A stretch of 22,811 nt of DNA, from positions 1-22,811 of the IMG/VR virus record IMGVR_UViG_3300008448_000701; one strand, 5' to 3'. Each line of letters opens with the position of its first letter. Positions within the stretch are counted from its first letter, which is position 1. The position numbers were made by a program, and so were the translations under genes. Positions 8,742-22,811 of this stretch are shown in pieces. Source of the stretch: a virus. The notes under the pieces are model-generated. The model searched no databases, was not told the DNA's origin, and was given only the letters and a program-made list of their open reading frames with translations.

Positions 8742-9376
8742 ATCACCCTCCGACCAACGGCTGGCGTGCCTGCGTCGTCTTCCCAACGACGTTGGTTGAT
8801 GTACGTCAAAGGTGCTGGCTCGTAGCCGCCTGTCCACTGCTCAGACACCTTCAGGATGTTGACCTGAGCGATGATGACGTCAGCTACAGAGTCCAACCCA
8901 GCCTTGGCCCATTTCTTCTGGCACTCTGACTTTGCGACCTTGCGTTTGGACGAAGGCCAACATTGCCAGAACTCGTCGAATTTCGACGATGTATTTATAT
9001 TCTTCTTCTGTATCTGTATCTTCTTAGGGTTATCGTTCGCTTTCGATTCGGTTTTCGATTCGGTTTTTGACGGCCTGCCGCCTCGCTTTCCGAGTTGTCG
9101 ATTATTTTCGACTTGATGTTGATACTTGGTAACTTCGACATGGCAACGATTGTTGAAATACCCTGTTTCGGTACGTTCAAAAAACTCATCCAAAACCGAT
9201 TCGGTTATGTCCAAATCAAGACGAATCTTGCGGGCCACAGCCTCGGTGTCAAGCGGAATCATCTTCTCGCTCATGTAGTAAAGGTCAAGCAGGCGTCGGT
9301 ACGCCAAGTCCTCTGCATCGCTGAGATGCACTGTGTGGGTGAGGTAGTCACCAATGTGAAATTTGTACCATATCAT
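8738..9376 (-). CDS. DUF1376-containing replication protein, 212 aa
   Basis: Residues 1 to about 95 are a DUF1376 domain: WYKFHIGDYLTHTVHLSDAE, YRRLLDLYYMSE, then DTEAVARKI and GYFNNRCHVEV. A Lys/Glu/Ser linker contains a short repeat (KTESKTESK), and a C-terminal part reads FDEFWQCWPSSKRKVAKSE and APLTYINQRRWEDD. That end is the FxxFWxxYPxK...PxTYLxxxRWxD pattern of phage replication and helicase-loader proteins. The gene sits directly before the primase-like and helicase genes, so a loader or initiator role is likely. The start is coupled to the HTH gene stop (ATGA). Confidence 0.82.
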   Translation of the reverse strand: MIWYKFHIGDYLTHTVHLSDAEDLAYRRLLDLYYMSEKMIPLDTEAVARKIRLDLDITESVLDEFFERTETGYFNNRCHVEVTKYQHQVENNRQLGKRGGRPSKTESKTESKANDNPKKIQIQKKNINTSSKFDEFWQCWPSSKRKVAKSECQKKWAKAGLDSVADVIIAQVNILKVSEQWTGGYEPAPLTYINQRRWEDDAGTPAVGRRVI

Positions 9377-9585
9377 TTCGCTGTCTTTCCAAAAATGTCG
9401 GGCCGAAGTTCAGCCCTCTTCACTTTCCTGCCTGTGTGCAACTCGATGTCACGAGCCAGTTCGGGACTAGGCAGTCGTCGCCCCGTAACAATCAATGAAA
9501 ACCACGTCTTGCTGATGCCCAGCGTGCGGGCCATAGCAATCATCGTCCCCCTCGGTTTGTCGGAAAAATATTCGGTTAGAGTCAT
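9373..9585 (-). CDS. Small Cro/YdaS-like HTH regulator, 70 aa
   Basis: The protein reads MTLTEYFSDKPRGTMIAMAR, then TLGISKTWFSLIVTGRRLPS, a clear helix-turn-helix of the Cro/CI-like type, and ends in an ELHTGRKVKRAELRPD segment. YdaS-type regulators have this layout (xLxxYFxxxxG...LAxxLGIS...ISxWxxGxRxxPxxxA). It is the first gene of the leftward arm and faces the recombination operon across a 103-base control region. It probably controls both directions. No integrase is visible, so it need not mean lysogeny. Confidence 0.78.
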   Translation of the reverse strand: MTLTEYFSDKPRGTMIAMARTLGISKTWFSLIVTGRRLPSPELARDIELHTGRKVKRAELRPDIFGKTAK

Positions 9586-12315: not shown

Positions 12316-14103
12316 TTACTCTTCTGGCGGTCTTTCTTTCAGCAATCGCTTGCCGAGTTCGTAGGTTCCTAGACCCAGCCCACCAAGGACGCCAGCGCCC
12401 CTTGTACGGGTCATTGTCTTGCCCGCAGGGGGTAACAGAGCCGCCGCCGCAGAACCCGCCTCCAAAGCCTTTAAAACGCCCTCGCTGGTATCGCCAGCCT
12501 TGAATCGAGCCAAAGCCTCTTGGTAACTCATCACGCCAAGGTAGCCAGCGCCACCACCAACAACAGTTCGCGGCAACGCGCCCATCTTTGCAGTCTTCAC
12601 GCCAGCGGCATCCAAAGGACGCACCAGCGCATTTGGCTGTTCTTGCGCACGAGCCAGTCTGCGACGAGCAATTTCGGCATCGGTCTCAGCTTTGGTCAGC
12701 GCACGCTGTAGAGGAGCCGCCGTGCGTTTCTGGCCCGTGACCACGTTGTGCTGTTGACCAGCCGCCGCACGCTCTCGACGCAGACGTTCCAACTCAGCCT
12801 CATAAGTGGCTTGTTGTTGCTGGAAAGCCCGCGCTTGGGCCTCTTGCTGAAGTCGAGCCTGTTCGGTTTTTTGAGCCAACTCGGCTTGACTTGCTTGGTT
12901 CTGTCGGTCTATATCAGCTTGACGCTCCGCCACAGTGGTGGGTGGCAATTGAAGTTGCACGCCGCCTTCGGTCGTCACGAGGCCATAGTCACCAGCACCA
13001 AGTTTCTTGATTTTTTCCAGATTTTTCAAGTCTTCTTCAATTAGGCGCTTACCGCCTGTTGGGCTGTCTTTGGTCTGGTCGGTAACGATGTCCAAAATGG
13101 CCTCTGGCATTTGATGCTTTTGGCCTGCGGACTTGATTGTCCAGTTCCTTACACCTGAGTCACCTTCGACTGGCGCACCACTTGCTGGGCCAGTGCGAAT
13201 CACTTGCGGGAACGGCGACGATGGTGCAGGCGGCTCAACCACTGGCGGAGTTCTGGGTAGACCCCTCAAGCGCTCTTGAGTCAGACGCTGTTCGTTCTTG
13301 AGGCGCTCAAGTTCGCCCTGACTTTGTCGGAATGTTTCCTCAAGATTGTCTGCGCCTTGAGGCACAGCGACCTCCAAGTTACGTCGAGCCAACTCCAGTT
13401 TGTCCGCAGTCTCCAGCGCACGCTCTTGAGCCTTACTGGTGTCAATCTTTGGAGGCAACTCTGGGTTTGTCATTGGCGGGAACAACAGGTTTGTCGCCGC
13501 ACCAGCAATAGCGCCAACTTCAGGCGCGTTGATTCCACCCTGCTTGTCATCAGGGTTCACGACCGCAGGAGGCTTGTTCTTTTCAGCCTCCTCCTGCTCA
13601 CGTTTTAACTTTGAGGACTCTGACTCGTAGCCCTCAAAAGGACTTTCACTTTTCTTCTCGCCATCATCAGCGCCACCGAAAAAGTTGGACGTGAGTTTGT
13701 GAGCGCCACGAATAGCTTGCTCGTATCCCTCGTCTTCTGCGTAGGAGCCTTTGACGCCCGTGCGCAGACCCTGCGCGTACTTGGTGATGTCGTCGCCAGT
13801 GTTGAGCGCCTTGGGGTAGAGGCGGCGCATCATGTTTGCATAGTAATCTCCAAAAGCCTCTGGGCTTTCAAAGTTCACATAGTTGTCTTTGGTCTTGCTC
13901 TTGTTGTCCACCGCTGAAGTGCCTGCGCCAGACATATCTTTGATGTTGCCAAGGTTGAAGTGACCCGGCACTTTTCGACCGTAGTCAGTCTCCATGCCCC
14001 ACTGAGCCAACAACACCGTAGGAGACACACCAATCTGCTTGCCTACCTGCACAGCAATCGGGCTGTACTCCTCGGTGAACATCTTTACATGGTCATTTGC
14101 CAT
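12316..14103 (-). CDS. Virion protein with N-terminal glucosaminidase/lysozyme domain, 595 aa
   Basis: Residues about 5-135 form a FlgJ/Acm2-type glucosaminidase domain: SPTVLLAQWGMETDYGRK with probable catalytic Glu38, then PGHFNLGNIK, VNFESPEAFGDYYANMM and EDEGYEQAIRG. It should open the cell wall during DNA entry. Residues 150-530 are mostly charged, coiled-coil and Gln/Ala-rich (QKTEQARLQQEAQARAFQQQ). The C-terminus has two glycine-rich hydrophobic patches (VVGGGAGYLGVM and GAGVLGGLGLG) suited to membrane insertion. This fits an ejected internal virion protein comparable in role to T7 gp16, though I see no clear homology to it. GGGGAG precedes the ATG. It is the last gene of the virion operon. 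Confidence 0.8.
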   Translation of the reverse strand: MANDHVKMFTEEYSPIAVQVGKQIGVSPTVLLAQWGMETDYGRKVPGHFNLGNIKDMSGAGTSAVDNKSKTKDNYVNFESPEAFGDYYANMMRRLYPKALNTGDDITKYAQGLRTGVKGSYAEDEGYEQAIRGAHKLTSNFFGGADDGEKKSESPFEGYESESSKLKREQEEAEKNKPPAVVNPDDKQGGINAPEVGAIAGAATNLLFPPMTNPELPPKIDTSKAQERALETADKLELARRNLEVAVPQGADNLEETFRQSQGELERLKNEQRLTQERLRGLPRTPPVVEPPAPSSPFPQVIRTGPASGAPVEGDSGVRNWTIKSAGQKHQMPEAILDIVTDQTKDSPTGGKRLIEEDLKNLEKIKKLGAGDYGLVTTEGGVQLQLPPTTVAERQADIDRQNQASQAELAQKTEQARLQQEAQARAFQQQQATYEAELERLRRERAAAGQQHNVVTGQKRTAAPLQRALTKAETDAEIARRRLARAQEQPNALVRPLDAAGVKTAKMGALPRTVVGGGAGYLGVMSYQEALARFKAGDTSEGVLKALEAGSAAAALLPPAGKTMTRTRGAGVLGGLGLGTYELGKRLLKERPPEE

Positions 14104-14104
14104 A

Positions 14105-15949
14105 TTACTCCCCTTCGCGTTTCTTGCGAATCACGCCAGTTTTTTTGTCTCGTATGTAGCCGGGAGGCACAGACGGGTCGGTTGATGGCAACGGCGTTGC
14201 AGGAGTGTTTGCCTTTGGATTTCCGCCCCCATCCGTTGGTGTGGCAGGCTTTGCGGGAGTTGGGGATGTAGCCGCTGGCGTTTTGTCCTTCTTCTTTGGC
14301 GACAGCAAGTCCATGTTCTCTTCGCGCACGCGGTCAAGCGTTTTGCGATAGTCAGCCTTGAGCGCCTTGAAGTCGTCGTCAACAAGGAAGTCGTTGTAGG
14401 TGTAGCCAGCCTGCTTGCTCTTTTGGTTCCACAGCTTGAAGCGCTCTTCGTCAAACATACCCTGCATCTTGAGGGCGTCGGACTTCAGAATGATGGCGCG
14501 TTGGCTGTCGGATGGCAACGCATAGATGCCGCCCAGCAGTTTGGTTTCGTAGTCGGAGGTGGAGCCTTCGCCCGGTGTCCTGTTCAACTGACGACCACGC
14601 GACTGCAACTGTGCGCTCTTCTGCATGAACATCTGCAACGCAGTCAAGTCGTTGCCACTGAGTTCGTACTGCTTGATGGTCGCGGCAGGCAGATTGATGT
14701 TGAAGTTGCCGACGTTCGCGCCTTCTTGCACAGCACGGGCCACCGCGTTCGCGAGGCCGGGGCGGTTCATAATGTCAAACACCAGCGGGTTGTTCTTGGC
14801 ATAGCCAATCATGTCGTTTGCAATGTTGCTGTTCTCAAACGCCGCCTCAGCTTGCAGGCCAAGTCGTGACGCCATCTTTTCAGCGGCTTCAGCGCGACCC
14901 TTTGAGGTTGTCTCTGCGGCGGCTTCGTCAGCCTTTTGCTCTGACGCGGATTTGGCGCGAGGAATAGGTGGCGGTGCGCCCCCCTCTGTTGGCGCTGTGC
15001 CGTCTGCTGGCTTTGGCGTAATCTTGCGACCACGAACCTGCTCAGACTCAAGCCAGCCCTTACGGTCATAGAACTCAAGCAACTTGTTCTCGTCGCCATC
15101 ATTGAAATATCTATTGAGGGCGTTTTGGTATTCAGCGTACTCAGCCACGTTCATCTCGCGCTCAGTGCGCAAGCCACGAGGGATAGCCTTGCGCTTGTCT
15201 TGGCCTAGCTTCTCGCGCTCAATGCGGTTCTTCTCTTCACCTTCTTGGGCCTTGCGAATCTCGGTCAAGGTTGGGAGCATCTTTGGAGCCACGCGGCTTG
15301 CCAGCAACAACACCTCATCAGTGATTGGAATGCGGCCTTGACGTGCGGCAGTCAAAACTTGGTTTGGATTTGGAGCGGTTGTAACGTCAACAGGCGAGGC
15401 TGTGCCGGGGACTCTTAGCTGTCCGTCTGGCGTAGTCACAGCACCGCCAGCAGGTGCAGGTGCGCCTACGTTTTTGGGGCCACCCATCAGGGCGCTGATT
15501 AACTGGTCGCCACCCAACTGCTGACGCAACTCTTGCTCTTTGCCAAGCAGTTCCATCTCCAGCTTCTGGTTCTCTCGCTGGTGGAGCATTTCGCGCTCTG
15601 CGGCTGTTCCAGCGTTCTCTGCGGCATACCCCAAGGATTCGCCAAACGAACCCGTCTTGGTTGGTTTTAAGAAGCCTGCGGCGGTCTGCATCAAGACAGG
15701 GTCAAACATCCTGTTCTTGCGCATATCCAAACTCTCACGCATACGCAACAGCGCGGCATTCATTGCCTCGCGCTGGTCGCCAAGGTCGTCAACGATTGTC
15801 TCTTTCAAGCCAGTCGGTTTCGATTTGGTTATCTCTTCGATGTTCTCGGCCTGCACTGCGCTTGCATCAAACTTGTTTCCAGCTTGAGCGGGAGGTTTTG
15901 CTTGAGCGGCGGAGGCTTGACCCAAACCACCCTGTGTTGGAATTGCCAT
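14105..15949 (-). CDS. Large internal virion protein candidate, 614 aa
   Basis: After an Ala/Gln-rich start comes a conserved-looking block LRMRESLDMRKNRMFDPVLM, then AAGFLKPTKTGSFGESLGYA, which I associate with uncultured-phage virion proteins. Long charged coiled-coil stretches follow (REMLHQRENQKLEMELLGKE and AESKADEAAAE-like segments). The globular part at about 370-540 includes YELSGNDLTALQMFMQKSAQ. The C-terminal tail is Pro/Thr/Lys-rich, ending PPGYIRDKKTGVIRKKREGE. It probably belongs to the ejectosome with its neighbours. No enzymatic motif is seen. Confidence 0.7.
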   Translation of the reverse strand: MAIPTQGGLGQASAAQAKPPAQAGNKFDASAVQAENIEEITKSKPTGLKETIVDDLGDQREAMNAALLRMRESLDMRKNRMFDPVLMQTAAGFLKPTKTGSFGESLGYAAENAGTAAEREMLHQRENQKLEMELLGKEQELRQQLGGDQLISALMGGPKNVGAPAPAGGAVTTPDGQLRVPGTASPVDVTTAPNPNQVLTAARQGRIPITDEVLLLASRVAPKMLPTLTEIRKAQEGEEKNRIEREKLGQDKRKAIPRGLRTEREMNVAEYAEYQNALNRYFNDGDENKLLEFYDRKGWLESEQVRGRKITPKPADGTAPTEGGAPPPIPRAKSASEQKADEAAAETTSKGRAEAAEKMASRLGLQAEAAFENSNIANDMIGYAKNNPLVFDIMNRPGLANAVARAVQEGANVGNFNINLPAATIKQYELSGNDLTALQMFMQKSAQLQSRGRQLNRTPGEGSTSDYETKLLGGIYALPSDSQRAIILKSDALKMQGMFDEERFKLWNQKSKQAGYTYNDFLVDDDFKALKADYRKTLDRVREENMDLLSPKKKDKTPAATSPTPAKPATPTDGGGNPKANTPATPLPSTDPSVPPGYIRDKKTGVIRKKREGE

Positions 15950-15952
15950 TCT

Positions 15953-16978
15953 TTACCCCACTAAGTAGCCATCGGCATCGTAAAAATTTCCGTTGCCATC
16001 GTGATATTCTGCGCCAGTTGGGGCCATTCCGCCATCAGCAAGACGTACACCGCCCCCTTTGGCTTTGCGCATGACTCCGCCTTTGGCGACCTTTGCCGCA
16101 CGCAAGCGAGACTCTTCTGCCATTGCGTCGTAGTACGCCTTCTGCGCGTCGGTTGAACTGGAACTTGGGAACAGCGACGCCACCAAAGAACCCAAGCCAG
16201 CAATCTGCGACAGCGGGCTATTGGAGTAACCTTCGGAACCAGTTGACTGTGTGGTCGTACCCATAGGCATTTGGTAGCCCTGCATCAGCTTGGCAAACTG
16301 CTGAGTCTGAGCCATTGGGTAGTCGAGCAACTTCTGGCCCTGAGCCTGCTGTTGAGCGCCGTAGTCGGACATGGTCTTCAAACCAGCCAGACCCATGCCT
16401 TGTTGGGCTTGGCCCAGATTCTCAAAAGCCTGACCAGCATTCAAGGCGCGAGACAAGTCTGTCTGAGCCTGTGTGCCAGCGGTCGTGTAGCCTTGCTGGA
16501 GGGCTTGCATTTGCTTGCCCATCAAGTCAGCTTGGATGTCACGCAAAGCGTTGCCAGTGACCTGCTGTTGACGACGTGAGCCAAACTGCCCAGAGCCAAC
16601 AGCCGCCGCACCGAGGTTTGGCATGATGTTTTCTTGGACGTTGCGGTTGGTCAAGCGACCCATCTCATCCACCACCGCACTGGTGTATGGGTTCATGTAG
16701 TCAGCAATGACGTCAGGAACGGTTGTAGCGCCCGCCTCGCCCAGCAATTGAGAAGCCGCGCCCATAGACCCAGCGCCAGCAAACGCGACGTCTGGAGCCA
16801 TCTGGAAGGCTTGCTGTTGCAAAGGACTGAAGCCAGCGATACCACCTTGCTGGACAGCGTTCTGGCCTAAGTTGGCAATGTCTTGCAGGTAATTCGTGTA
16901 AAACTCTGGAGCCGTCTGCTGGGCTTCCGTCGTCTTGGTAATCGCGGGTAGTGGGTCACCCTGAAATAAGCCAGCCAT
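15953..16978 (-). CDS. Ala/Gln-rich virion protein with KGG-DGG tail, 341 aa
   Basis: The N-terminal third reads APEFYTNYLQDIANLGQNAV and GIAGFSPLQQQAFQMAPD. The middle holds DYMNPYTSAVVDEMGRLTNR, then IMPNLGAAAVGSGQFGSRRQ, a recurring block in environmental phage virion proteins. The C-terminal third is Gln/Ala-rich with a short hydrophobic segment (IAGLGSLVASLF), followed by a basic KGGVMRKAKGGGVRLADGG tail. Its size, position and composition suggest an internal or ejection protein similar in role to T7 gp14. AGGAGCGAAATA precedes the ATG, and the ATG overlaps the previous stop by one base. Confidence 0.7.
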   Translation of the reverse strand: MAGLFQGDPLPAITKTTEAQQTAPEFYTNYLQDIANLGQNAVQQGGIAGFSPLQQQAFQMAPDVAFAGAGSMGAASQLLGEAGATTVPDVIADYMNPYTSAVVDEMGRLTNRNVQENIMPNLGAAAVGSGQFGSRRQQQVTGNALRDIQADLMGKQMQALQQGYTTAGTQAQTDLSRALNAGQAFENLGQAQQGMGLAGLKTMSDYGAQQQAQGQKLLDYPMAQTQQFAKLMQGYQMPMGTTTQSTGSEGYSNSPLSQIAGLGSLVASLFPSSSSTDAQKAYYDAMAEESRLRAAKVAKGGVMRKAKGGGVRLADGGMAPTGAEYHDGNGNFYDADGYLVG

Positions 16979-19797
16979 TATTTCGCTCCTTTGAGGTATG
17001 AGGTCAGCGCCTTGGTCTTGGGCGGAATTTTATTGATTGGAGCCGAGCGCTTGTGGGCGCGGATGCCCTCGCGGAACTTGTCCAAAGCCTGAGCGCCCGC
17101 CTTTGTTGAGCCGTTACCAATCTGGGCCACGGTCTCGGCGTCAATCACATACTCACCGTCCGCCAGCATAGCTGGGATGTCGTCCGACTGTCCATCGCCA
17201 GCGCCATGCACAGCCGCACCCTTGCGGAAGTCCATGCGGCCCTGAGTCAGTGGCACGTTGGAAACGTGAGGCAAGCCGCCCTTGCGCATTGGGGGAGCCA
17301 TGCCCTGCTGTTGAGGCATCATGCCTTGCTGTGGCATCCCTTGTGGCATTTGTTGCGCCATTTGAGGAGGCTGTTGCTGTGGCAGACCCTGCTGTTGTGC
17401 TTGCTGAGGGGGTTGCTGTTGACCAATCTGAGGCATCATCTCAGGAGGGTTCATTGGGGGTTGCTGACGCATTCCCAAGTTCGCCAAGATGTCCGCAGGC
17501 TGACCGAAGGTGTAGTACGAGGCCACAGGGGTAGCCATCGAAGACAGGCCACCAGAGGCCATTTTGGGAGCCTCTTCTTCAGCGGCAACTTCTTCGTAGC
17601 CGTAGTCGCCTTCGTTCACGGGGTTGTACCCCGGGGCATTCAGGTTCTTCAGCAACTCTGCGTTTGGCGTGTAGTCGCCATCGCTTGTGCCGTAGTCTTC
17701 GTAGCCCACAAAGCGAGTTGGGCCAATTCCAAAATCTGTGGTGCGTGGGTTGATGAGGCCAACCTGCGACATATCCAAACCTTGGTTTTGCGCACCAGTA
17801 CCACCGCTAAAGTCTTGACCAAGCAACGTGGCAACCAAAGCGCCAGCGCCAGCCGCGCCTGCGGTTGTGCCAAGCGCACCAGTAATACCAGACAGGGCGT
17901 CACTACCTAAGCGGGTCAATGTGTTAACACCACCAGTCAAGGTGTTACCCAAGTTTTCATACCAAGGACGCTCACCGCCACCAGAGGATGTGATGTCTTC
18001 TGGAACTTCAGCCGCACGATAAAACTCGCCGTTCCTGAAAATGTTGCCCAGCGAATCAGTGTCGTAGTACGGCTCTTCCTCATCCGTTGAGTAAATGGCA
18101 TCAGGACTGACGTTGCTGATGTCTCCAGTGTCTGGGTCGGTGGAGTACAGGTACTCGTCCGTCATCATGTCATAGGTGAAGTTGCCAATGGTGTATGTGC
18201 CATCGCCGTTATCAACGTATCCGCCGTCTTCAAATTTAGCGACTCCGCCTTTTTTCATCATAGTAATCAAGCCTCCACGTTTGCCGTATTCTTCATCTTC
18301 GTATGGTATGTAATACGACGAGTCGTCATTGTTTACAGCGTAGTCGCTGTCCCAATAAATATCTTCTGGGTAATCGGTATAGTCCGATGAGTCGTTGTAG
18401 ACGCTGTAGTCTGTGGAGTCATCACTGAGAACGCTGTCATCAAGCGACGCCCAATAGCTGTCGTAATTGAAATCAGTGTCCCACGTCCCGTCTTCACCCA
18501 TAGTCCAAACTGCACCAGTTGCATCATCAACCCAAGTGTTGTCAGCAACGGGGGTGTCTTCGTAGATGTCCTCGTCTACTTCTGCGGCACGGTAAAGGTC
18601 ATACCCACCATCCGCAGTTGAAATGTAAACATTACCCAATGAGTCTTCAAAATATTCAGGCTCAAAACCAGTTGAACTGTCGTCTGTACCCACTGTGTTT
18701 GGGGGGAAGGCGTCAATATCTTCATCGACCTCTGCGGCACGATACAACTCATACGTCCCATCAGGCATCGTCTTGTAGACATTGCCCAAGGAGTCTGTCA
18801 TGTATTCGTCTTCGGCAACCTCTGCGGCTCGATAAAGTTCGGAAGTGCCATCAGGCATGGTTTTATAGACGTTACCCAAAGAGTCGGTTGTGAACTCGTC
18901 TTCAGGGACTTCAGCGGCGCGATACAAAACTTCAGAGCCATCAGGCATGACCTGATAAACATTGCCTTTTTCGTCTGTGATGAACTCATCATCAGCGGGG
19001 GGCGCTGGAGGGCCGACATAGTTGGGGTCTTTAGGGTCAGTGACAGGCGGCTTCACCACGCTTGTTGGGGGAGCCTTTGGTTTTACCGCCTCAGCTTTTG
19101 CTTTTGCGGCGGCATCCGCCTTTGCCTTTGCGGCGGCAGTTGCAGTAGCGGCGGCGGCTTTGTCTTTTGACGTGGCGCTGGCTAACGCTTTCTTTTCAGC
19201 GGCAATTTGCGCTGGTGTTTTTGAGACGTTTGGCTTGCCAGTAATTTTGTCAATCAACAGTTTTGTGCCAGCACCAATCGCCGCGCCCGTGAGTGCGTTC
19301 ACCACCTTACTGGTGGTCGAGTTTGGATTGCTGACATTTGGCTTGACCGTAGGTTTTGCCGCGCCTGTACCAGTTGTGGTTTTGGTGGTCGGTGTAGTCG
19401 TGGTCTTGTTTGTAATCGTCGGTTTTGTCGTCGGCGTGGTTTTAGACGTCAGCGTTGTCTTGGGGGCAAGCGTCGTCTTAGGTGTAGATGATGTCTTCGT
19501 GGTCAAAGATGTCTTTGGAGTCAAAGTAGTCTTTGGCGTCGAAGACGTGCTTGTTGTCAGCGTAGGCTTGGTTGCAGGGTTGACAAACGTCGAGGTGAAC
19601 GGGCGGTTGCCAACGCCAGATTTGATGTTGGTATTGGAGCCGCCAGAGCCACCAGCAGAAGTCAAAGAAGACGCGCCCCTGTCAGAGATGAAGGGGGTAT
19701 TGTCTACACCGCGAATGACGCTACCCAGCGGTGCGCGGTCAACTCCCCTTGCGTCAGGAAGTTGTCTGCTTGATGTGCGTTTTTTTAGAATAGCCAT
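16978..19797 (-). CDS. Giant modular virion protein with tandem repeats, 939 aa
   Basis: The parts in order are: a basic N-terminus; a Thr/Lys/Pro linker (78-145); a glycine/hydrophobic segment (168-183); an Ala/Lys helix (197-240); 30-residue acidic repeats (271-360, 381-410, vestige 577-600); an acidic Tyr/Asp/Ser stretch (440-505); a KKGGVAKFEDGG motif (515-526); a YTIGNFTYD beta segment; a hydrophobic Gly/Ala patch (631-660); a Gln/Pro/Met-rich run (775-836); and a terminal module with GDGQSDDIPAMLADGEYVI (868-886). That terminal module is widespread in environmental phage virion proteins. The chain looks largely extended. A role as an internal or tail-associated protein is inferred from the operon. 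No catalytic site is seen. Confidence 0.7.
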   Translation of the reverse strand: MAILKKRTSSRQLPDARGVDRAPLGSVIRGVDNTPFISDRGASSLTSAGGSGGSNTNIKSGVGNRPFTSTFVNPATKPTLTTSTSSTPKTTLTPKTSLTTKTSSTPKTTLAPKTTLTSKTTPTTKPTITNKTTTTPTTKTTTGTGAAKPTVKPNVSNPNSTTSKVVNALTGAAIGAGTKLLIDKITGKPNVSKTPAQIAAEKKALASATSKDKAAAATATAAAKAKADAAAKAKAEAVKPKAPPTSVVKPPVTDPKDPNYVGPPAPPADDEFITDEKGNVYQVMPDGSEVLYRAAEVPEDEFTTDSLGNVYKTMPDGTSELYRAAEVAEDEYMTDSLGNVYKTMPDGTYELYRAAEVDEDIDAFPPNTVGTDDSSTGFEPEYFEDSLGNVYISTADGGYDLYRAAEVDEDIYEDTPVADNTWVDDATGAVWTMGEDGTWDTDFNYDSYWASLDDSVLSDDSTDYSVYNDSSDYTDYPEDIYWDSDYAVNNDDSSYYIPYEDEEYGKRGGLITMMKKGGVAKFEDGGYVDNGDGTYTIGNFTYDMMTDEYLYSTDPDTGDISNVSPDAIYSTDEEEPYYDTDSLGNIFRNGEFYRAAEVPEDITSSGGGERPWYENLGNTLTGGVNTLTRLGSDALSGITGALGTTAGAAGAGALVATLLGQDFSGGTGAQNQGLDMSQVGLINPRTTDFGIGPTRFVGYEDYGTSDGDYTPNAELLKNLNAPGYNPVNEGDYGYEEVAAEEEAPKMASGGLSSMATPVASYYTFGQPADILANLGMRQQPPMNPPEMMPQIGQQQPPQQAQQQGLPQQQPPQMAQQMPQGMPQQGMMPQQQGMAPPMRKGGLPHVSNVPLTQGRMDFRKGAAVHGAGDGQSDDIPAMLADGEYVIDAETVAQIGNGSTKAGAQALDKFREGIRAHKRSAPINKIPPKTKALTSYLKGAK
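17992..18069 (-). repeat. Displaced copy of the 30-aa repeat
   Basis: Residues 577-602 read YYDTDSLGNIFRNGEFYRAA then EVPED. It retains DSLGN(V/I) and YRAAEVPED but has lost four central residues. It lies about 165 residues beyond the main array. Confidence 0.75.
18568..18990 (-). repeat. Tandem 90-base (30-aa) repeat array
   Basis: Three copies follow exactly every 30 residues (271-300, 301-330, 331-360) and a fourth after a 20-residue insertion (381-410). The consensus is DE(F/Y)xTDSLGNVYKTMPDG, then (S/Y)ELYRAAEVxE. The DNA copies differ at many third positions, so they are not very recent duplications. Confidence 0.85.
19363..19566 (-). repeat. Thr/Lys/Pro low-complexity linker
   Basis: Residues 78-145 of the giant virion protein consist of imperfect 5-8 residue units of the type TPKTTLxxKT. 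This should be an extended, flexible and positively charged linker. Confidence 0.8.
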
Positions 19798-19800
19798 TTT

Positions 19801-21537
19801 TTATCCACCATTCTTTACAAGCGAAGTCAGACTTGCAATGTCGGTTATAGGAGTTAAGTTTGCTCCGCTTGCCAAAGTCTTTGCAGGCGCGGCACGAGCA
19901 ACTTTTTTGACCTGTTGTGTTGGCGCGGCCTTCTGAATTGGAATCAGCTTTGCCACGTCCATGCGTTGTGGTGGAGGCGCTTTGCGTGCAACAGGCTTGG
20001 CAGTTGCCATTTGCAAACCACCAGCAGGTCTTGGCGCAGGAGCGCGACGCACTGGTTGCTTTTTCTGCGTCAAGGTTTGCTTGAGCAAGTTGCCAACAGT
20101 AGCGACCATAGGCTTGGTGAAGTCTGTGGGTTTGATGCCCATAGAGGTTGCCATTTTTGCTTCAGGCGTTGCTTGTTCTGCTTGCGCAACGGCATTCAAA
20201 CCACCAGCGGGTTGGTCAGAAGCCAAGCCAGCAGTCAACAGGTCTTGAGCAACAGGAGCCTCAGACACAACAGCAGGCTTGGAAGTGTCCAAGTCGATTG
20301 CTGGTACGGAAGCGTCAGCCAGAGCATTCAAGCCGCCCACAGGTTCTGTTGATGCAACAGCAGGAGCCTCGGATGGAAGACCCTCAGCAATGTCAATCAC
20401 GCTTTCAGGGACGTCTTCGGTTCCGACGGGTGCTTCAGCCAACAAGGTGTTGCTAGATGCTGGAGTCTCTTCGCCAAGCAATTCAGCAAAATCAGTTTCG
20501 CCTTCAGCTTGAGGGGCGTCCGCAAAAATTTCACCGCGTCGAACTTCAATCTCAGGAAGAGATTCAGAGTCAGGAAGAATTGCAATCTCAGACGTTGGGG
20601 TCTCGCCAGTGTATGAAGATGTTGCGTTGTTTACACTTTCTGTTTCATCAGCGTCAGCCAACACGCTTGCAACATCAAAAGTGCCTGCGTCGTTTTCCAC
20701 GCCGTAACCAGAGACGGTGACTTGACCAACAACTTCATCAGGGATACCAGCGCCAGTTGTTGCTACGCTGACTGGTTCGCCTTCTTTGTCTTTCTCGTTC
20801 CAATCAGTTGCGGCGGCGCGGAACTGCTTATCAATTGATTCGTTGACTTCACGAACGCCATAGTCAACACCTGAGCCAACCGCGCTGTTTGCGAATGCAG
20901 TTTCAAAGTCGCCTCGACCAGTCACTTCAGCAGTGATGCCAGATGAGAATGCTCTTGTGCCTGCGTTGAAGACTGCGGTTGCGTCTTGCAAGTCCAAGCC
21001 GCTTTCCATAGCCAACTCAATGACGTCAGGCTTGACGTAGCTTGCAACTTCGCTGACACCGCCTGAGACCATGCCGCCAGTAAATCCACCAGCAAAACCG
21101 TCTTCAAAATCGCCGCCTTTAATTTCTGCAATTGTTCCGTTGACCAAGCCCTTACTGATTGAAGAACTTGCAACTTGAGAGAATGTTTCGTTGAAACCAG
21201 CCTCAATGAAAGTAGACGACACAGTAGAGGAAATTGCACTGCCAACTTGGGGAGCAAAGTACGCCGTACCCATTGACAGGGCAATGTCCTCAAGGTCACC
21301 GCCGCGTGCGGCAGTGATTGCGCCCATCGTGACGGCAGGAGGTATGCCGACAAAACTGCCAGCAACAGAGAGCAGGACAGGGAGCGGGTCGTCAATTACC
21401 GCTTGAACAACGTCACCAACTTTTTCGACAACGTCACCGACAACGTCAACAACGTCTTCGACGACGTCACCAACGGCTTCAAATACGTCGCCAACAGCTT
21501 CAAAGGCGTCTTCAACGATACTGACAACTGCGCTCAT
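19801..21537 (-). CDS. Membrane-active, repeat-containing virion protein, 578 aa
   Basis: Residues 10-47 are a 7-residue repeat (FEAVGDV, VEDVVDV, VGDVVEK...), predicted amphipathic helix. Then comes a Gly/Ala/Ser-rich section with repeated GGDxED(I/G)A units (GGDLEDIALSMGTAYFAPQV, GGDFEDGFAGGFTGGM, GRGDFETAFANSAVGSG), a style seen in proteins that insert into membranes. The C-terminal half is Ala/Pro/Glu-rich with P(A/V)GGL(N/Q) motifs at 399, 443 and 505, and ends in a basic Pro/Ala/Lys tail. It probably acts in DNA ejection. GGGAATAAGC precedes the ATG. No catalytic motif is seen. Confidence 0.7.
   Translation of the reverse strand: MSAVVSIVEDAFEAVGDVFEAVGDVVEDVVDVVGDVVEKVGDVVQAVIDDPLPVLLSVAGSFVGIPPAVTMGAITAARGGDLEDIALSMGTAYFAPQVGSAISSTVSSTFIEAGFNETFSQVASSSISKGLVNGTIAEIKGGDFEDGFAGGFTGGMVSGGVSEVASYVKPDVIELAMESGLDLQDATAVFNAGTRAFSSGITAEVTGRGDFETAFANSAVGSGVDYGVREVNESIDKQFRAAATDWNEKDKEGEPVSVATTGAGIPDEVVGQVTVSGYGVENDAGTFDVASVLADADETESVNNATSSYTGETPTSEIAILPDSESLPEIEVRRGEIFADAPQAEGETDFAELLGEETPASSNTLLAEAPVGTEDVPESVIDIAEGLPSEAPAVASTEPVGGLNALADASVPAIDLDTSKPAVVSEAPVAQDLLTAGLASDQPAGGLNAVAQAEQATPEAKMATSMGIKPTDFTKPMVATVGNLLKQTLTQKKQPVRRAPAPRPAGGLQMATAKPVARKAPPPQRMDVAKLIPIQKAAPTQQVKKVARAAPAKTLASGANLTPITDIASLTSLVKNGG
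21397..21510 (-). repeat. 21-base tandem repeats encoding heptads
   Basis: About five 21-base units with recurring ACGTC trinucleotide patterns encode residues 10-47 of the 578 aa protein (DAFEAVG, DVFEAVG, DVVEDVV, DVVGDVV, EKVGDVV). The unit length equals one heptad of an amphipathic helix. Confidence 0.75.
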
Positions 21538-21539
21538 GC

Positions 21540-21983
21540 TTATTCCCTTTCAGCCCGCTTTGGCCCTAACTTGACCGTCACGCGGAAACCTGTTTTGGTT
21601 CTCTCGGCTTTGTAGCCCATGCCCTCTTGCGGGGGGTTGCGTGAGATTGCTTTGAAAATGTTCATAATTGTTGGGTCTTCAAACTCGCTTACAAGCGTGT
21701 CAAAACCCATCTTGTATGCACCTTGGATGAAGGCGTATGAACTCTCTAGGTAGTTGCGGGCGGTGTCTGCGTTTAAGGCGCGGAACACACCAACACGCCC
21801 CTCGGCGTTGTGGATAACGAAAAGGGTGTTGCCCTCGCGCACGATAGATGTGCCGGGCATATTCATCTCTTTGACCATTGCCGCGTAGACAGTGGAGGCA
21901 GGGTGTGGCGACTTGGTTTCTTGAGCCGCAATCATCAAGATTGCTTCTTGACCCAGTTGTTTCTTTTTGCTATCGACCAGCAT
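21540..21983 (-). CDS. Small protein coupled to the ketosynthase gene, 147 aa
   Basis: The preferred start is ATG at 21983, with AAGGGG 5 bases upstream; a GTG one codon earlier is possible. The stop of the ketosynthase overlaps this ATG by one base (TGATG), so translation is coupled. The protein has a helical N-terminus (KKKQLGQEAILMIAAQET), then strands (TSIVREGNTLFVIHN, GRVGVFRALNAD), a helix (NYLESSYAFIQGAYKMGFD) and a strand pair near the end (YKAERTKTGFRVTVKLG). The alpha/beta order is reminiscent of a GNAT acyltransferase fold, and T7-like phages carry a GNAT-like small protein (gp13) in this operon position. I cannot confirm either from sequence. Confidence 0.75.
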   Translation of the reverse strand: MLVDSKKKQLGQEAILMIAAQETKSPHPASTVYAAMVKEMNMPGTSIVREGNTLFVIHNAEGRVGVFRALNADTARNYLESSYAFIQGAYKMGFDTLVSEFEDPTIMNIFKAISRNPPQEGMGYKAERTKTGFRVTVKLGPKRAERE

Positions 21984-22811
21984 CACATCCCCTTAAAAAT
22001 TGCGGCGGAATAGATGTTGCCCATCCCAGCCGCCAGACTCATTATCAGACCATCAGGTGGTGTTGTCGATTCCGAAAGGAATACCGAATCGGTTTCGGTT
22101 CGGTTCTCAATCGCTGGAACAACTCCAGACCTAATATCGTTTAACAGTAAAAGTGTCTCAAGCAGTCCACTGCTACCCATCGTATGACCAATTTTTTGTT
22201 TATACGAGGTTGCAACGAATGCTTTTAGCGTTTGGTTCAAGGCGTTCTTTTCAGCCTTGTTGTTGGACGCCGTTCCAGTGCCGTGGGTTTTGACTATTTT
22301 AATCTCATCAGGGGATATATTGCTATAGTGCATAGCACCTTCCATAGCCTTGATGAAGCCCTCACCGTCCTCGCACTGCCCAATTGCATTTGTTGAGCGC
22401 TCTGAGGCGCTGTAAGCCCCCACCAGACGGGCGTGAGGCTTGATTTGTTGTCTGGCTACAGCGTCACGGGACTCAAATACAGCCAAGGCCGCGCCCTGAC
22501 CAATCCGAAACCCAAAGTTCGTCGAGTCGAAAGCGGATGGCTTTATGCCCTCCTGCTCTTGCTTTTCGGTCAGCACAGCCTTGGAGTCACCAAAGAACTC
22601 CAGCACAGCGTTGGAGACGCCATCCTCGACAGTCAGAACGATTACACGGTCGTAATCGTAGAAGTCAATGAGGTTGACCACATCCATCATCACCTTGAGG
22701 CTTGAAGCGCAGGCGCTGGCATCGGTGGTGACCATGTCCATCTCACCAAAAGACTGAGCGATACGACCCGCATAGACCTGCGTCAACGTGAATGGCAGGA
22801 ACTTGTAGGTA
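21983..22811 (-). CDS. Beta-ketoacyl-ACP synthase (KAS/FabF-like) homologue, partial at right edge
   Basis: The frame is open to the window edge, so the N-terminus (about 130 residues) is missing. The visible upstream residues TYKFLPFTLTQVYAGRIAQS match the P-x-x-L-x-N/T-x-x-A-G-R-I-A approach to the active site. The nucleophile block is TTDASACASSLKV, His one is in VKTHGTGTASNNKAE, and Lys plus His two are in YKQKIGHTMGSSGLLE. The Cys-His spacing is 142 residues and His-His 33, close to FabF (140 and 37). The late GFGG loop is replaced by GMGN. This thiolase-fold enzyme class condenses acyl-ACP with malonyl-ACP. It is coupled to the 147 aa gene and lies upstream of the virion proteins; the native substrate is unknown. 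Confidence 0.88.
   Translation of the reverse strand, partial: TYKFLPFTLTQVYAGRIAQSFGEMDMVTTDASACASSLKVMMDVVNLIDFYDYDRVIVLTVEDGVSNAVLEFFGDSKAVLTEKQEQEGIKPSAFDSTNFGFRIGQGAALAVFESRDAVARQQIKPHARLVGAYSASERSTNAIGQCEDGEGFIKAMEGAMHYSNISPDEIKIVKTHGTGTASNNKAEKNALNQTLKAFVATSYKQKIGHTMGSSGLLETLLLLNDIRSGVVPAIENRTETDSVFLSESTTPPDGLIMSLAAGMGNIYSAAIFKGM

What the first reader, a model, noticed from the sequence alone, without database searches (positions are those of the whole stretch)
21983..22811. A beta-ketoacyl synthase with an intact catalytic triad inside a phage virion operon
The last gene of the window carries all hallmarks of a condensing enzyme: Cys in DASACASSL, His in THGTGT, Lys and His in KQKIGH, in the right order and at near-canonical spacing. 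It shares an operon with ejection-type virion proteins on the same strand and is coupled to its neighbour by a one-base stop/start overlap. Phages rarely carry fatty-acid condensing enzymes. The position among virion genes rather than in the metabolic/early arm suggests late expression. Possible roles: redirecting host fatty-acid chain length, making an acyl group that modifies a virion protein, or a structural use of the fold.
Basis: partly seen in the sequence, partly recalled or inferred. Interest (0 to 1): 0.92.

Follow-up and report, generated by a model that had tools for sequence, protein, structure and literature searches.

The report
Phage acyl-building enzymes beside virion genes
A group of uncultured phages carries, among the genes for proteins injected with its DNA, its own fatty-acid carrier protein and chain-building enzyme next to a predicted acyl-transferring protein, which suggests (untested) that these phages attach a fatty group to an injected virion protein.

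Summary
Window 22810-21983 (-) is the 3' three-quarters of a ketosynthase (KAS) gene; a contig identical to the window's last 1,930 bases completes it (369 aa), so it is phage DNA. Cys/His/Lys/His are kept in 108 of 108 distinct homologues, under purifying selection. Two things change the picture: (1) an acyl carrier protein (ACP) gene lies directly upstream, Asp-Ser kept in 105 of 105; (2) the 148-aa downstream neighbour has a confidently predicted GNAT acyltransferase fold without the CoA-loop motif. In the loci kept from four searches, ACP, KAS and GNAT occur together wherever the contig reaches. Four other fatty-acid families were not found in 18 records. Some relatives have GNAT and the next gene without ACP-KAS, so ACP-KAS is a separable module. 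Best reading (0.4): a dedicated acyl-ACP supply for a GNAT-type transferase that acylates the ejection protein encoded next (N-terminus nearly always Met-Ser/Gly), working like RtxC/HlyC. Acylation is inferred; nothing was assayed. Rivals: lipid AMG, small-molecule N-acylation, non-enzymatic assembly role.

The parts
21983..22810 (-). Beta-ketoacyl-ACP synthase (KAS), residues 95-369 of 369; the 5' part and the upstream ACP gene lie beyond the window (L002, L003)
   Evidence: catalytic Cys/His/Lys/His kept in 108 of 108 distinct homologues
22709..22711 (-). codon of the nucleophilic Cys (Cys128 of the full protein)
22283..22285 (-). codon of catalytic His270 (THGTGT)
22184..22201 (-). codons of Lys298 to His303 (KQKIGH)
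21540..21986 (-). 148-aa protein with predicted GNAT acyltransferase fold lacking the CoA pyrophosphate-loop motif; overlaps the KAS stop (start at the GTG, or one codon later at the ATG)
   Evidence: AlphaFold2 pLDDT 92.2; Foldseek and VIA matches to GNATs; motif absent at the expected place in 97 of 97 distinct homologues
19801..21537 (-). 578-aa putative ejection protein, N-terminus MSAVV, followed by a Val-rich and hydrophobic region; proposed acyl target
   Evidence: 98 distinct homologues start within 4 bases of the GNAT stop; position 2 is S 66, G 27, A 4, K 1; conservation
16978..19797 (-). 939-aa tape-measure/ejection-type protein; its C-terminus is the part matched in Caulobacter phage GB2A, which lacks the cassette
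15953..16978 (-). 341-aa DNA-ejection-type protein
   Evidence: phrog_4287 E 0.0017; homologue in GB2A, 33% identity, 1.1e-31
14105..15949 (-). 614-aa late-operon protein without a family match
12316..14103 (-). 595-aa glucosaminidase/lysin
   Evidence: PF01832 2e-10, phrog_3513 1.3e-19

Best explanation
ACP, KAS and the GNAT-fold protein form one cassette, expressed late (inferred from its place), that makes a particular acyl-ACP and uses it to acylate a virion protein. Steps: host phosphopantetheinyl transferase and malonyl transferase charge the phage ACP (inferred; neither family was found in 18 phage records); the phage KAS elongates or selects the acyl chain, with host FabG/FabZ/FabI doing the reductions (inferred from the intact KAS and the missing partners); the GNAT-fold protein takes the acyl group from the ACP's pantetheine arm (inferred from fold, missing CoA loop and linkage) and puts it on the ejection protein encoded right after it, most simply on its N-terminal Ser/Gly amine (inferred), so that this protein can enter the cell envelope during injection (inferred). 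Shown: gene identities, tight linkage, conserved catalytic residues, purifying selection, and that the GNAT plus ejection-protein pair also occurs without ACP-KAS. Not shown: any enzymatic activity or acylation.
For: KAS residues intact in 108/108 and ACP Asp-Ser in 105/105 distinct sequences; median dN/dS 0.079 KAS, 0.100 ACP, 0.083 GNAT over pairs with pS 0.1-0.6. Linkage: of 82 KAS sequences (81 loci and the window) 80 have the ACP and 73 the GNAT gene; the 2 and 9 without are cut by the contig end. Of 69 further KAS loci 66 have all three, 3 are cut by contig ends; of 80 GNAT-query loci 77 have KAS and ACP, 3 begin too close; of 80 ACP-query loci 79 have KAS directly after the ACP, 1 ends inside the ACP. 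These sets share many contigs. GNAT fold: pLDDT 92.2, Foldseek best E 2.3e-4, VIA Z up to 11.2. G-N-T and N-x-D invariant in 10 of 10 aligned members with and without KAS. No Q/RxxGxG/A at the CoA loop in 97 of 97, as described for the acyl-ACP-using, GNAT-like RtxC proteins (PMC8339906, passages). No match to the AcpS, FabG-type SDR, FabA/Z or malonyl-transferase family in any of 18 records. Next gene begins M[S/G/A] in 97 of 98, with varied codons. Clean ACP-KAS-free site in L400; GB2A without cassette.
Against: No biochemical or proteomic data. GNAT occurs without ACP-KAS in relatives, so it does not need a phage ACP. G-N-T is not universal: L454 and the by-eye homologue in L393 read N-N-T, and L393, L396 and L398 lack the first Asn of N-x-D. 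Small residues at position 2 are common in phage proteins (A+S+G 67 of 167 background ORFs), so the N-terminal pattern is only suggestive, and 1 of 98 breaks it. An invariant Tyr and a nearly invariant Thr in the 22-sequence alignment are other possible acceptors. The ACP scores below Pfam's cut-off (12.6 vs 20.8 bits). The KAS model is poor (pLDDT 63) though its fold match is clear. The GNAT/ejection-gene tie could be mere order in a virion operon.
Confidence: 0.4

Rival explanations
1. Ordinary auxiliary metabolic genes: the phage ACP and KAS boost or re-tune host fatty-acid or membrane-lipid synthesis during infection; their place among virion genes only sets late timing, and the GNAT neighbour is unrelated.
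For: ACP genes in other phages are read this way in print (PMC11705849, PMC5463345, passages); Rhodobacteraceae prophages with fabG-acpP-fabF are reported (PMC8224337, passages). KAS and ACP could plug into the host FASII.
Against: In the loci kept, ACP-KAS lies directly upstream of the GNAT gene in the ejection operon; no fabG-type, FabA/Z or malonyl-transferase match in 18 records; a late gene has little time to change membranes (inference).
Confidence: 0.22
2. The GNAT-fold protein is a non-catalytic assembly or ejection factor (Pfam names T7 gp13 a probable scaffold protein), and ACP-KAS serve as structural or chaperone folds.
For: GNAT persists without ACP-KAS beside the ejection protein; canonical GNAT loop motif missing; gene order parallels T7 12-13-14-15-16, where gp13 matches PF11090.
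Against: Every KAS catalytic residue and the ACP serine are invariant in 108 and 105 sequences, unexpected for folds used only structurally; few but strict positions in the GNAT protein.
Confidence: 0.18
3. The three proteins make a small N-acyl molecule (LuxI/FeeM-like: a GNAT-fold enzyme using acyl-ACP, recalled), for instance a signal or membrane-active lipid.
For: The AHL synthase TofI appears at rank 18 of the Foldseek list.
Against: The listed structural matches are mostly N-acetyltransferases, with the protein acetyltransferase RimI first; constant coupling to an ejection gene.
Confidence: 0.1
4. Bacterial DNA or a chimeric assembly at the window's right edge.
For: The gene is cut by the window edge.
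Against: Identical overlap with L002 and 96% identity with L003 across the junction; same order in 80 loci, near-duplicates among them, and in a deposited circular phage genome, MW202545.1; phage KAS form one branch apart from 7 comparison KAS.
Confidence: 0.01

Closest known systems
FabF/FabB beta-ketoacyl-ACP synthases (type II FAS)
   Same: Both Pfam ketosynthase domains, Cys-His-Lys-His set, fold match
   Different: Compact (369 aa; the single-domain PDB chains listed have 404-451); over long alignments at most 31.4% identical to the 7 comparison sequences; far below the FabF equivalog cut-off (115 vs 494 bits for the 275-aa part); in a virion operon, with no FabG-type, FabA/Z or malonyl-transferase match in 18 records
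phrog_35856 (PHROGs, unknown function)
   Same: The phage KAS matches it at 1.3e-37, best stretch residues 2-313 of 369
   Different: The PHROG carries no function; the KAS nature and ACP/GNAT linkage are stated here
RtxC/HlyC toxin-activating acyltransferases
   Same: GNAT-like structure without CoA-binding elements and acyl-ACP donor in RtxC (PMC8339906, passages); gene near its target
   Different: No sequence match to the RtxC Pfam family for two GNAT proteins scanned; here the phage brings its own ACP and KAS; target unproven
Phage-borne acpP and the prophage fabG-acpP-fabF cluster (PMC8224337, passages)
   Same: ACP next to a KAS in phage DNA
   Different: No fabG match in 18 records; virion operon; followed by a GNAT-fold gene
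T7 gene 13 - gene 14
   Same: Small protein between a tail gene and the first internal virion protein; gp14 homologues begin Met-Cys in 26 of 26 distinct sequences
   Different: No profile similarity of gp13 to the window's GNAT protein; no fold was predicted for gp13 here, so a fold link is not shown

Membership tests
Beta-ketoacyl-ACP synthase (ketoacyl-synt superfamily) | Cys-His-His nucleophile set plus Lys | tested here: met
   108 of 108 distinct near-full sequences; aligned to FabF
Beta-ketoacyl-ACP synthase (ketoacyl-synt superfamily) | ketosynthase domains over curated cut-off and thiolase-type fold | tested here: met
   Pfam; Foldseek best E 4.8e-17 on a pLDDT-63 model
FabF equivalog (TIGR03150) | score over 493.75 bits | tested here: not met
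   115.2 bits for the 275-aa part; the full length was not scanned with this library
Beta-ketoacyl-ACP synthase (ketoacyl-synt superfamily) | decarboxylating condensation of malonyl-ACP | not testable with these tools
   needs an enzyme assay
Acyl carrier protein | phosphopantetheine-site Asp-Ser-Leu | tested here: met
   Asp-Ser in 105 of 105 distinct; D-S-L-D-G invariant in the 41 aligned
Acyl carrier protein | profile similarity to known ACPs | tested here: met
   77 PDB sequences at E<=10, best 3.6e-4; of the 60 shown most are titled ACP, the rest SDAP1, NDUFAB1-type subunits, NodF and one PKS-NRPS chain, which I take for ACP homologues
Acyl carrier protein | Pfam PP-binding over its cut-off | tested here: not met
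   12.6 bits against 20.8 for the L003 protein; no match for the L048 one
GNAT superfamily | GNAT fold | tested here: met
   model pLDDT 92.2; Foldseek 18 matches at E<=1e-3; VIA first row RimI, Z 11.2, rmsd 3.2, 123 aligned, many rows tied
GNAT superfamily | Q/RxxGxG/A pyrophosphate loop after strand 4 (motif recalled) | tested here: not met
   0 of 97 at that place; 5 matches elsewhere in the chain
RtxC/HlyC acyltransferases | sequence match to the family | tested here: not met
   no such match for two GNAT proteins at E<=1 in Pfam
RtxC/HlyC acyltransferases | acyl-ACP-dependent acylation of the neighbouring gene's product | not testable with these tools
   needs mass spectrometry
FASII-type AMG cluster (fabG-acpP-fabF) | fabG beside acpP and fabF | tested here: not met
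   0 of 18 records match PF13561
T7 gp13 family | profile similarity | tested here: inconclusive
   hhalign probability 0.1%; gp13 was not folded here

The most novel reading that the evidence does not exclude
GNAT-fold proteins encoded just before the first ejection protein are dedicated N-acyltransferases that lipidate that protein's exposed N-terminus (Ser/Gly here, perhaps Cys in T7 gp14), giving phages a lipid-anchored injected protein; the phages of this window have added their own ACP and ketosynthase to make a special acyl group for it.
Probability: 0.17. Interest if true: 0.95.

Novelty: new variant of a known kind. Interest (0 to 1): 0.78.

Why it matters
No phage-encoded fatty acylation of virion proteins turned up in the paper searches made (listings; a few papers opened at passages). 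If right, the ACP-KAS genes found in hundreds of stretches of uncultured viral contigs (379) would be part of the injection machinery, not metabolism, and small conserved proteins beside ejection genes would gain a directly testable chemical role. Even if the acylation idea fails, a tightly linked, catalytically intact ACP-KAS-GNAT cassette in a virion operon needs explaining.

Tried and rejected
Chimera or bacterial contamination: rejected by overlapping contigs and repeated order.

KAS as a dead, chain-length-factor-like paralogue: rejected, catalytic residues kept in 108 of 108.

A wider FAS set elsewhere in the genome: not found in 60 of 61 ORFs of record G003 by Pfam at 1e-5 (greedy set of ORFs of 70 aa or more; one ORF across a fetched-piece boundary was not scanned), nor by four family searches of 18 records (the records may be fragments).

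Homology of the GNAT protein to T7 gp13: no profile support; gp13's profile has no PDB sequence match; kept only as a parallel. A PDB sequence search with the window GNAT profile gave one chance-level row.

Origin of the KAS: one scan of genome contigs gave a single locus, itself a phage-like stretch in a Balneolaceae MAG (only two peptide patterns were used, so not exhaustive); that MAG's next ketosynthase matches score 34.8 bits or less against 637. In the plasmid search (406 records, all under 60% identity) the ten rows listed are 25.6-27.8% identical. For the KAS tree ten comparison loci were fetched; the script found a usable ORF in 7 and left out L438, L441 and L443, and 14 near-duplicate phage rows were dropped; with 7 long-branched outgroups it shows separation, not ancestry. 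Gain or loss of ACP-KAS is unresolved: the GNAT tree needs at least 3 changes and its deep forks are weak.

A search for relatives of a KAS-less GNAT gave 4 loci, too few to survey that slot. A search of deposited phages with the first 130 residues of the 578-aa protein gave no match.

Counts and dropped rows: the partner gene was sought as an ORF of 60 aa or more beginning between 40 bases before and 90 after the GNAT stop; rows sharing the first 150 residues were merged, pieces L084-L095 were left out, and loci without such an ORF are not counted. L223 (MKYNH) was dropped before the table but is in the 98. The 22 sequences are my selection. Each collection search keeps only its best 80 loci. 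Locus sets from different queries share contigs, so their counts must not be added. In one search, 54 of 80 loci have all three genes, 3 have KAS and GNAT but begin after the ACP, 23 show neither KAS nor ACP; of those 23, GNAT was found in 12 (weakly in L397) and not in 11, and several (L385, L391, L392, L399) hold under 1 kb upstream, where absence means little.

Recalled, from no call: E. coli FabF biology, the GNAT Q/RxxGxG/A motif, LuxI/FeeM and N-myristoyltransferase biology, which Pfam model is RtxC's.

Full report
Observation. The last gene of the window (21983-22810, minus strand, open at the edge) matches both Pfam ketosynthase domains over their curated cut-offs, the PHROG family phrog_35856 of unknown function, and 97 distinct PDB sequences at E<=1e-3, the best a FabF at 7.7e-24. 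The gene is phage DNA: contig L002 is identical to the window over its last 1,930 bases and L003 is 96% identical over 10.8 kb, and both continue upstream. The complete protein has 369 residues. The predicted model is poor (pLDDT 63), but the structural matches shown are ketosynthases, best E 4.8e-17.

What surrounds it. The gene directly upstream, outside the window, encodes a 93-residue ACP. Its profile hits PDB carrier proteins (best E 3.6e-4; 60 of 77 rows shown), although single sequences are below Pfam's PP-binding cut-off. Asp-Ser of the phosphopantetheine site is present in 105 of 105 distinct sequences. The gene directly downstream, window 21540-21986, has no family match better than E 0.066, but its AlphaFold2 model is confident (pLDDT 92.2, pTM 0.84) and has a GNAT fold. 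Foldseek gives 18 PDB matches at E<=1e-3; the 50 rows shown are mostly titled acetyltransferases, with four rows of a domain without a functional title and the AHL synthase TofI at rank 18. VIA-align 2 gives RimI first, Z 11.2, rmsd 3.2 over 123 residues, with many rows tied within Z 1. The CoA pyrophosphate-loop motif (recalled: Q/RxxGxG/A) is absent after strand 4 in 97 of 97 distinct sequences. Then follow ejection-type proteins and a glucosaminidase.

How constant it is. A scan of viral contigs with the KAS part found 379 stretches encoding a relative, of which the best 80 were kept. With MW202545.1 and the window that makes 82 KAS sequences: 80 have the ACP and 73 the GNAT gene, and the 2 and 9 without are cut by a contig end. 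With a distant KAS as query, 66 of 69 new loci have all three genes and 3 are cut; with the GNAT profile, 77 of 80 kept loci have KAS and ACP and 3 begin too close. With the ACP profile, 79 of 80 kept loci have KAS starting at the ACP's end; one ends inside the ACP. These sets share contigs. The same order is in the deposited circular phage MW202545.1, where the KAS is annotated with a later start and the ACP as hypothetical, and in a phage-like stretch of a Balneolaceae MAG. KAS Cys/His/Lys/His are kept in 108 of 108 distinct near-full sequences. Median pairwise dN/dS, over pairs with pS between 0.1 and 0.6, is 0.079 for KAS, 0.100 for ACP, 0.083 for GNAT and 0.152 for the small upstream gene P86.

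What is missing. Of 18 virus records none matches AcpS, the FabG-type SDR family, FabA/Z or the malonyl-transferase family, while each has exactly one PF00109 ketosynthase. A Pfam scan of 60 of 61 ORFs of one 54-kb record matched 23 families, with no further lipid enzyme among them. So the pair would have to rely on host enzymes for charging and reduction.

Comparison with relatives. Among deposited phages the nearest cultured ones by capsid are Caulobacter phages (76.6% identity to the capsid protein of record G003). They gave no match in searches with KAS, ACP or GNAT. In GB2A the tail-hub gene is followed by a P86 homologue (E 3e-9) and then directly by a gene whose C-terminus matches the 939-aa protein; the 578-aa protein's best match there is E 0.013, to a different gene. 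In MW202545.1 the two are one gene: its N-terminus matches the 578-aa protein and its C-terminus the 939-aa one. A search with the N-terminal domain of the 578-aa protein gave 80 kept loci: 54 with all three genes, 3 beginning after the ACP, and 23 with neither KAS nor ACP; among these 23, GNAT was detected in 12, and GNAT-like ORFs can be seen by eye in L393, L396 and L398. In L400 the hub gene, the P86-like gene, GNAT (48% identical) and the ejection protein follow each other, with 70 bases where ACP-KAS would be. In L373 the slot holds a PF10118 metal-dependent hydrolase instead. So ACP-KAS behaves as a separable module in front of a GNAT plus ejection-protein pair; whether it was gained or lost is unresolved. 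In an alignment of ten diverse GNAT proteins with and without KAS only G-N-T and N-x-D are invariant; this looks like an active site but was not tested, and more distant members vary: L454 and L393 read N-N-T, and L393, L396 and L398 keep only the Asp of N-x-D.

The partner gene. The product encoded right after GNAT begins Met-Ser (66), Met-Gly (27), Met-Ala (4) or Met-Lys (1) in 98 distinct sequences; among 23 representatives under 60% identity it is S 15, G 7, A 1 (L223 left out). Both serine codon classes and several glycine codons occur, which points to constraint on the protein. Background ORFs of four related records have A 34, S 26 and G 7 of 167 at this position, so this is an enrichment of Ser/Gly, not proof. 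In a 22-sequence alignment its conserved region has no invariant Lys, Cys or Ser; Ser2 is nearly invariant, one Tyr invariant and one Thr nearly so. In KAS-less relatives the same protein often begins Met-Gly by eye (for example L376, L380, L387, L393, L396, L398), but also Met-Ser (L395), Met-Ala (L400) and Met-Cys (L404).

Mechanism. The reading that ties these facts together is acyl-ACP-dependent acylation of an ejection protein. RtxC proteins are the precedent: GNAT-like structure lacking CoA-binding elements and an acyl-ACP donor (PMC8339906, passages). This protein is not a member of that family by sequence; it would work like it. I give this 0.4, the plain AMG reading 0.22, a non-catalytic assembly role 0.18, small-molecule acylation 0.10.

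Prior art. Phage ACP genes and one fabG-acpP-fabF prophage cluster are in print (PMC8224337, PMC11705849, PMC5463345: passages only; PMC11924767 names an ACP in one passage). Searches for phage ketosynthase, AMG, acylated virion proteins and T7 gp13 listed no paper whose title or abstract start describes this cassette, 104 papers held the terms and 12 were listed; most listed papers were not opened, and the library is open-access only.

Noticed in passing
L407-L435 (T7-like phages), first gene after gene 13: T7 gp14 homologues begin Met-Cys in 26 of 26 distinct sequences from 29 loci. With gene 13 just upstream this parallels the GNAT plus Met-Ser/Gly pair, but gp13 showed no profile similarity.
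   Followed up: partly
L373:2821-3519: In a relative without ACP-KAS, the slot between P86 and GNAT holds a PF10118 predicted metal-dependent hydrolase (8.4e-40) with two EExxH-like motifs: possibly another acyl-modifying enzyme.
   Followed up: partly
L082:10833-13994 (MW202545.1): Two ejection-type proteins are extraordinarily cysteine-rich, one with a long run of Cys/Ser near its end; the record annotates that one as a coronavirus S2 glycoprotein, surely wrong.
   Followed up: no
L087-L089 and L008 (record G003): A related 54-kb phage has matches to a TET-associated glycosyltransferase, an ADP-ribosyltransferase domain of polyvalent proteins, and Cpn10.
   Followed up: no
window 9373-9585 (-): Small DNA-binding-like ORF; the ORF set of record G003 includes one YdaS-family match. 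Assignment to this ORF was not checked.
   Followed up: no
L390, L391, L392, L403, L405: The hydrophobic domain of the 578-aa protein is embedded inside long frames (1,469 codons, open at the locus end, in L390, L391, L392 and L403; L405 is shorter and cut), and no GNAT gene was detected beside them, unlike many loci where the domain is N-terminal; upstream DNA is short in L391 and L392.
   Followed up: no
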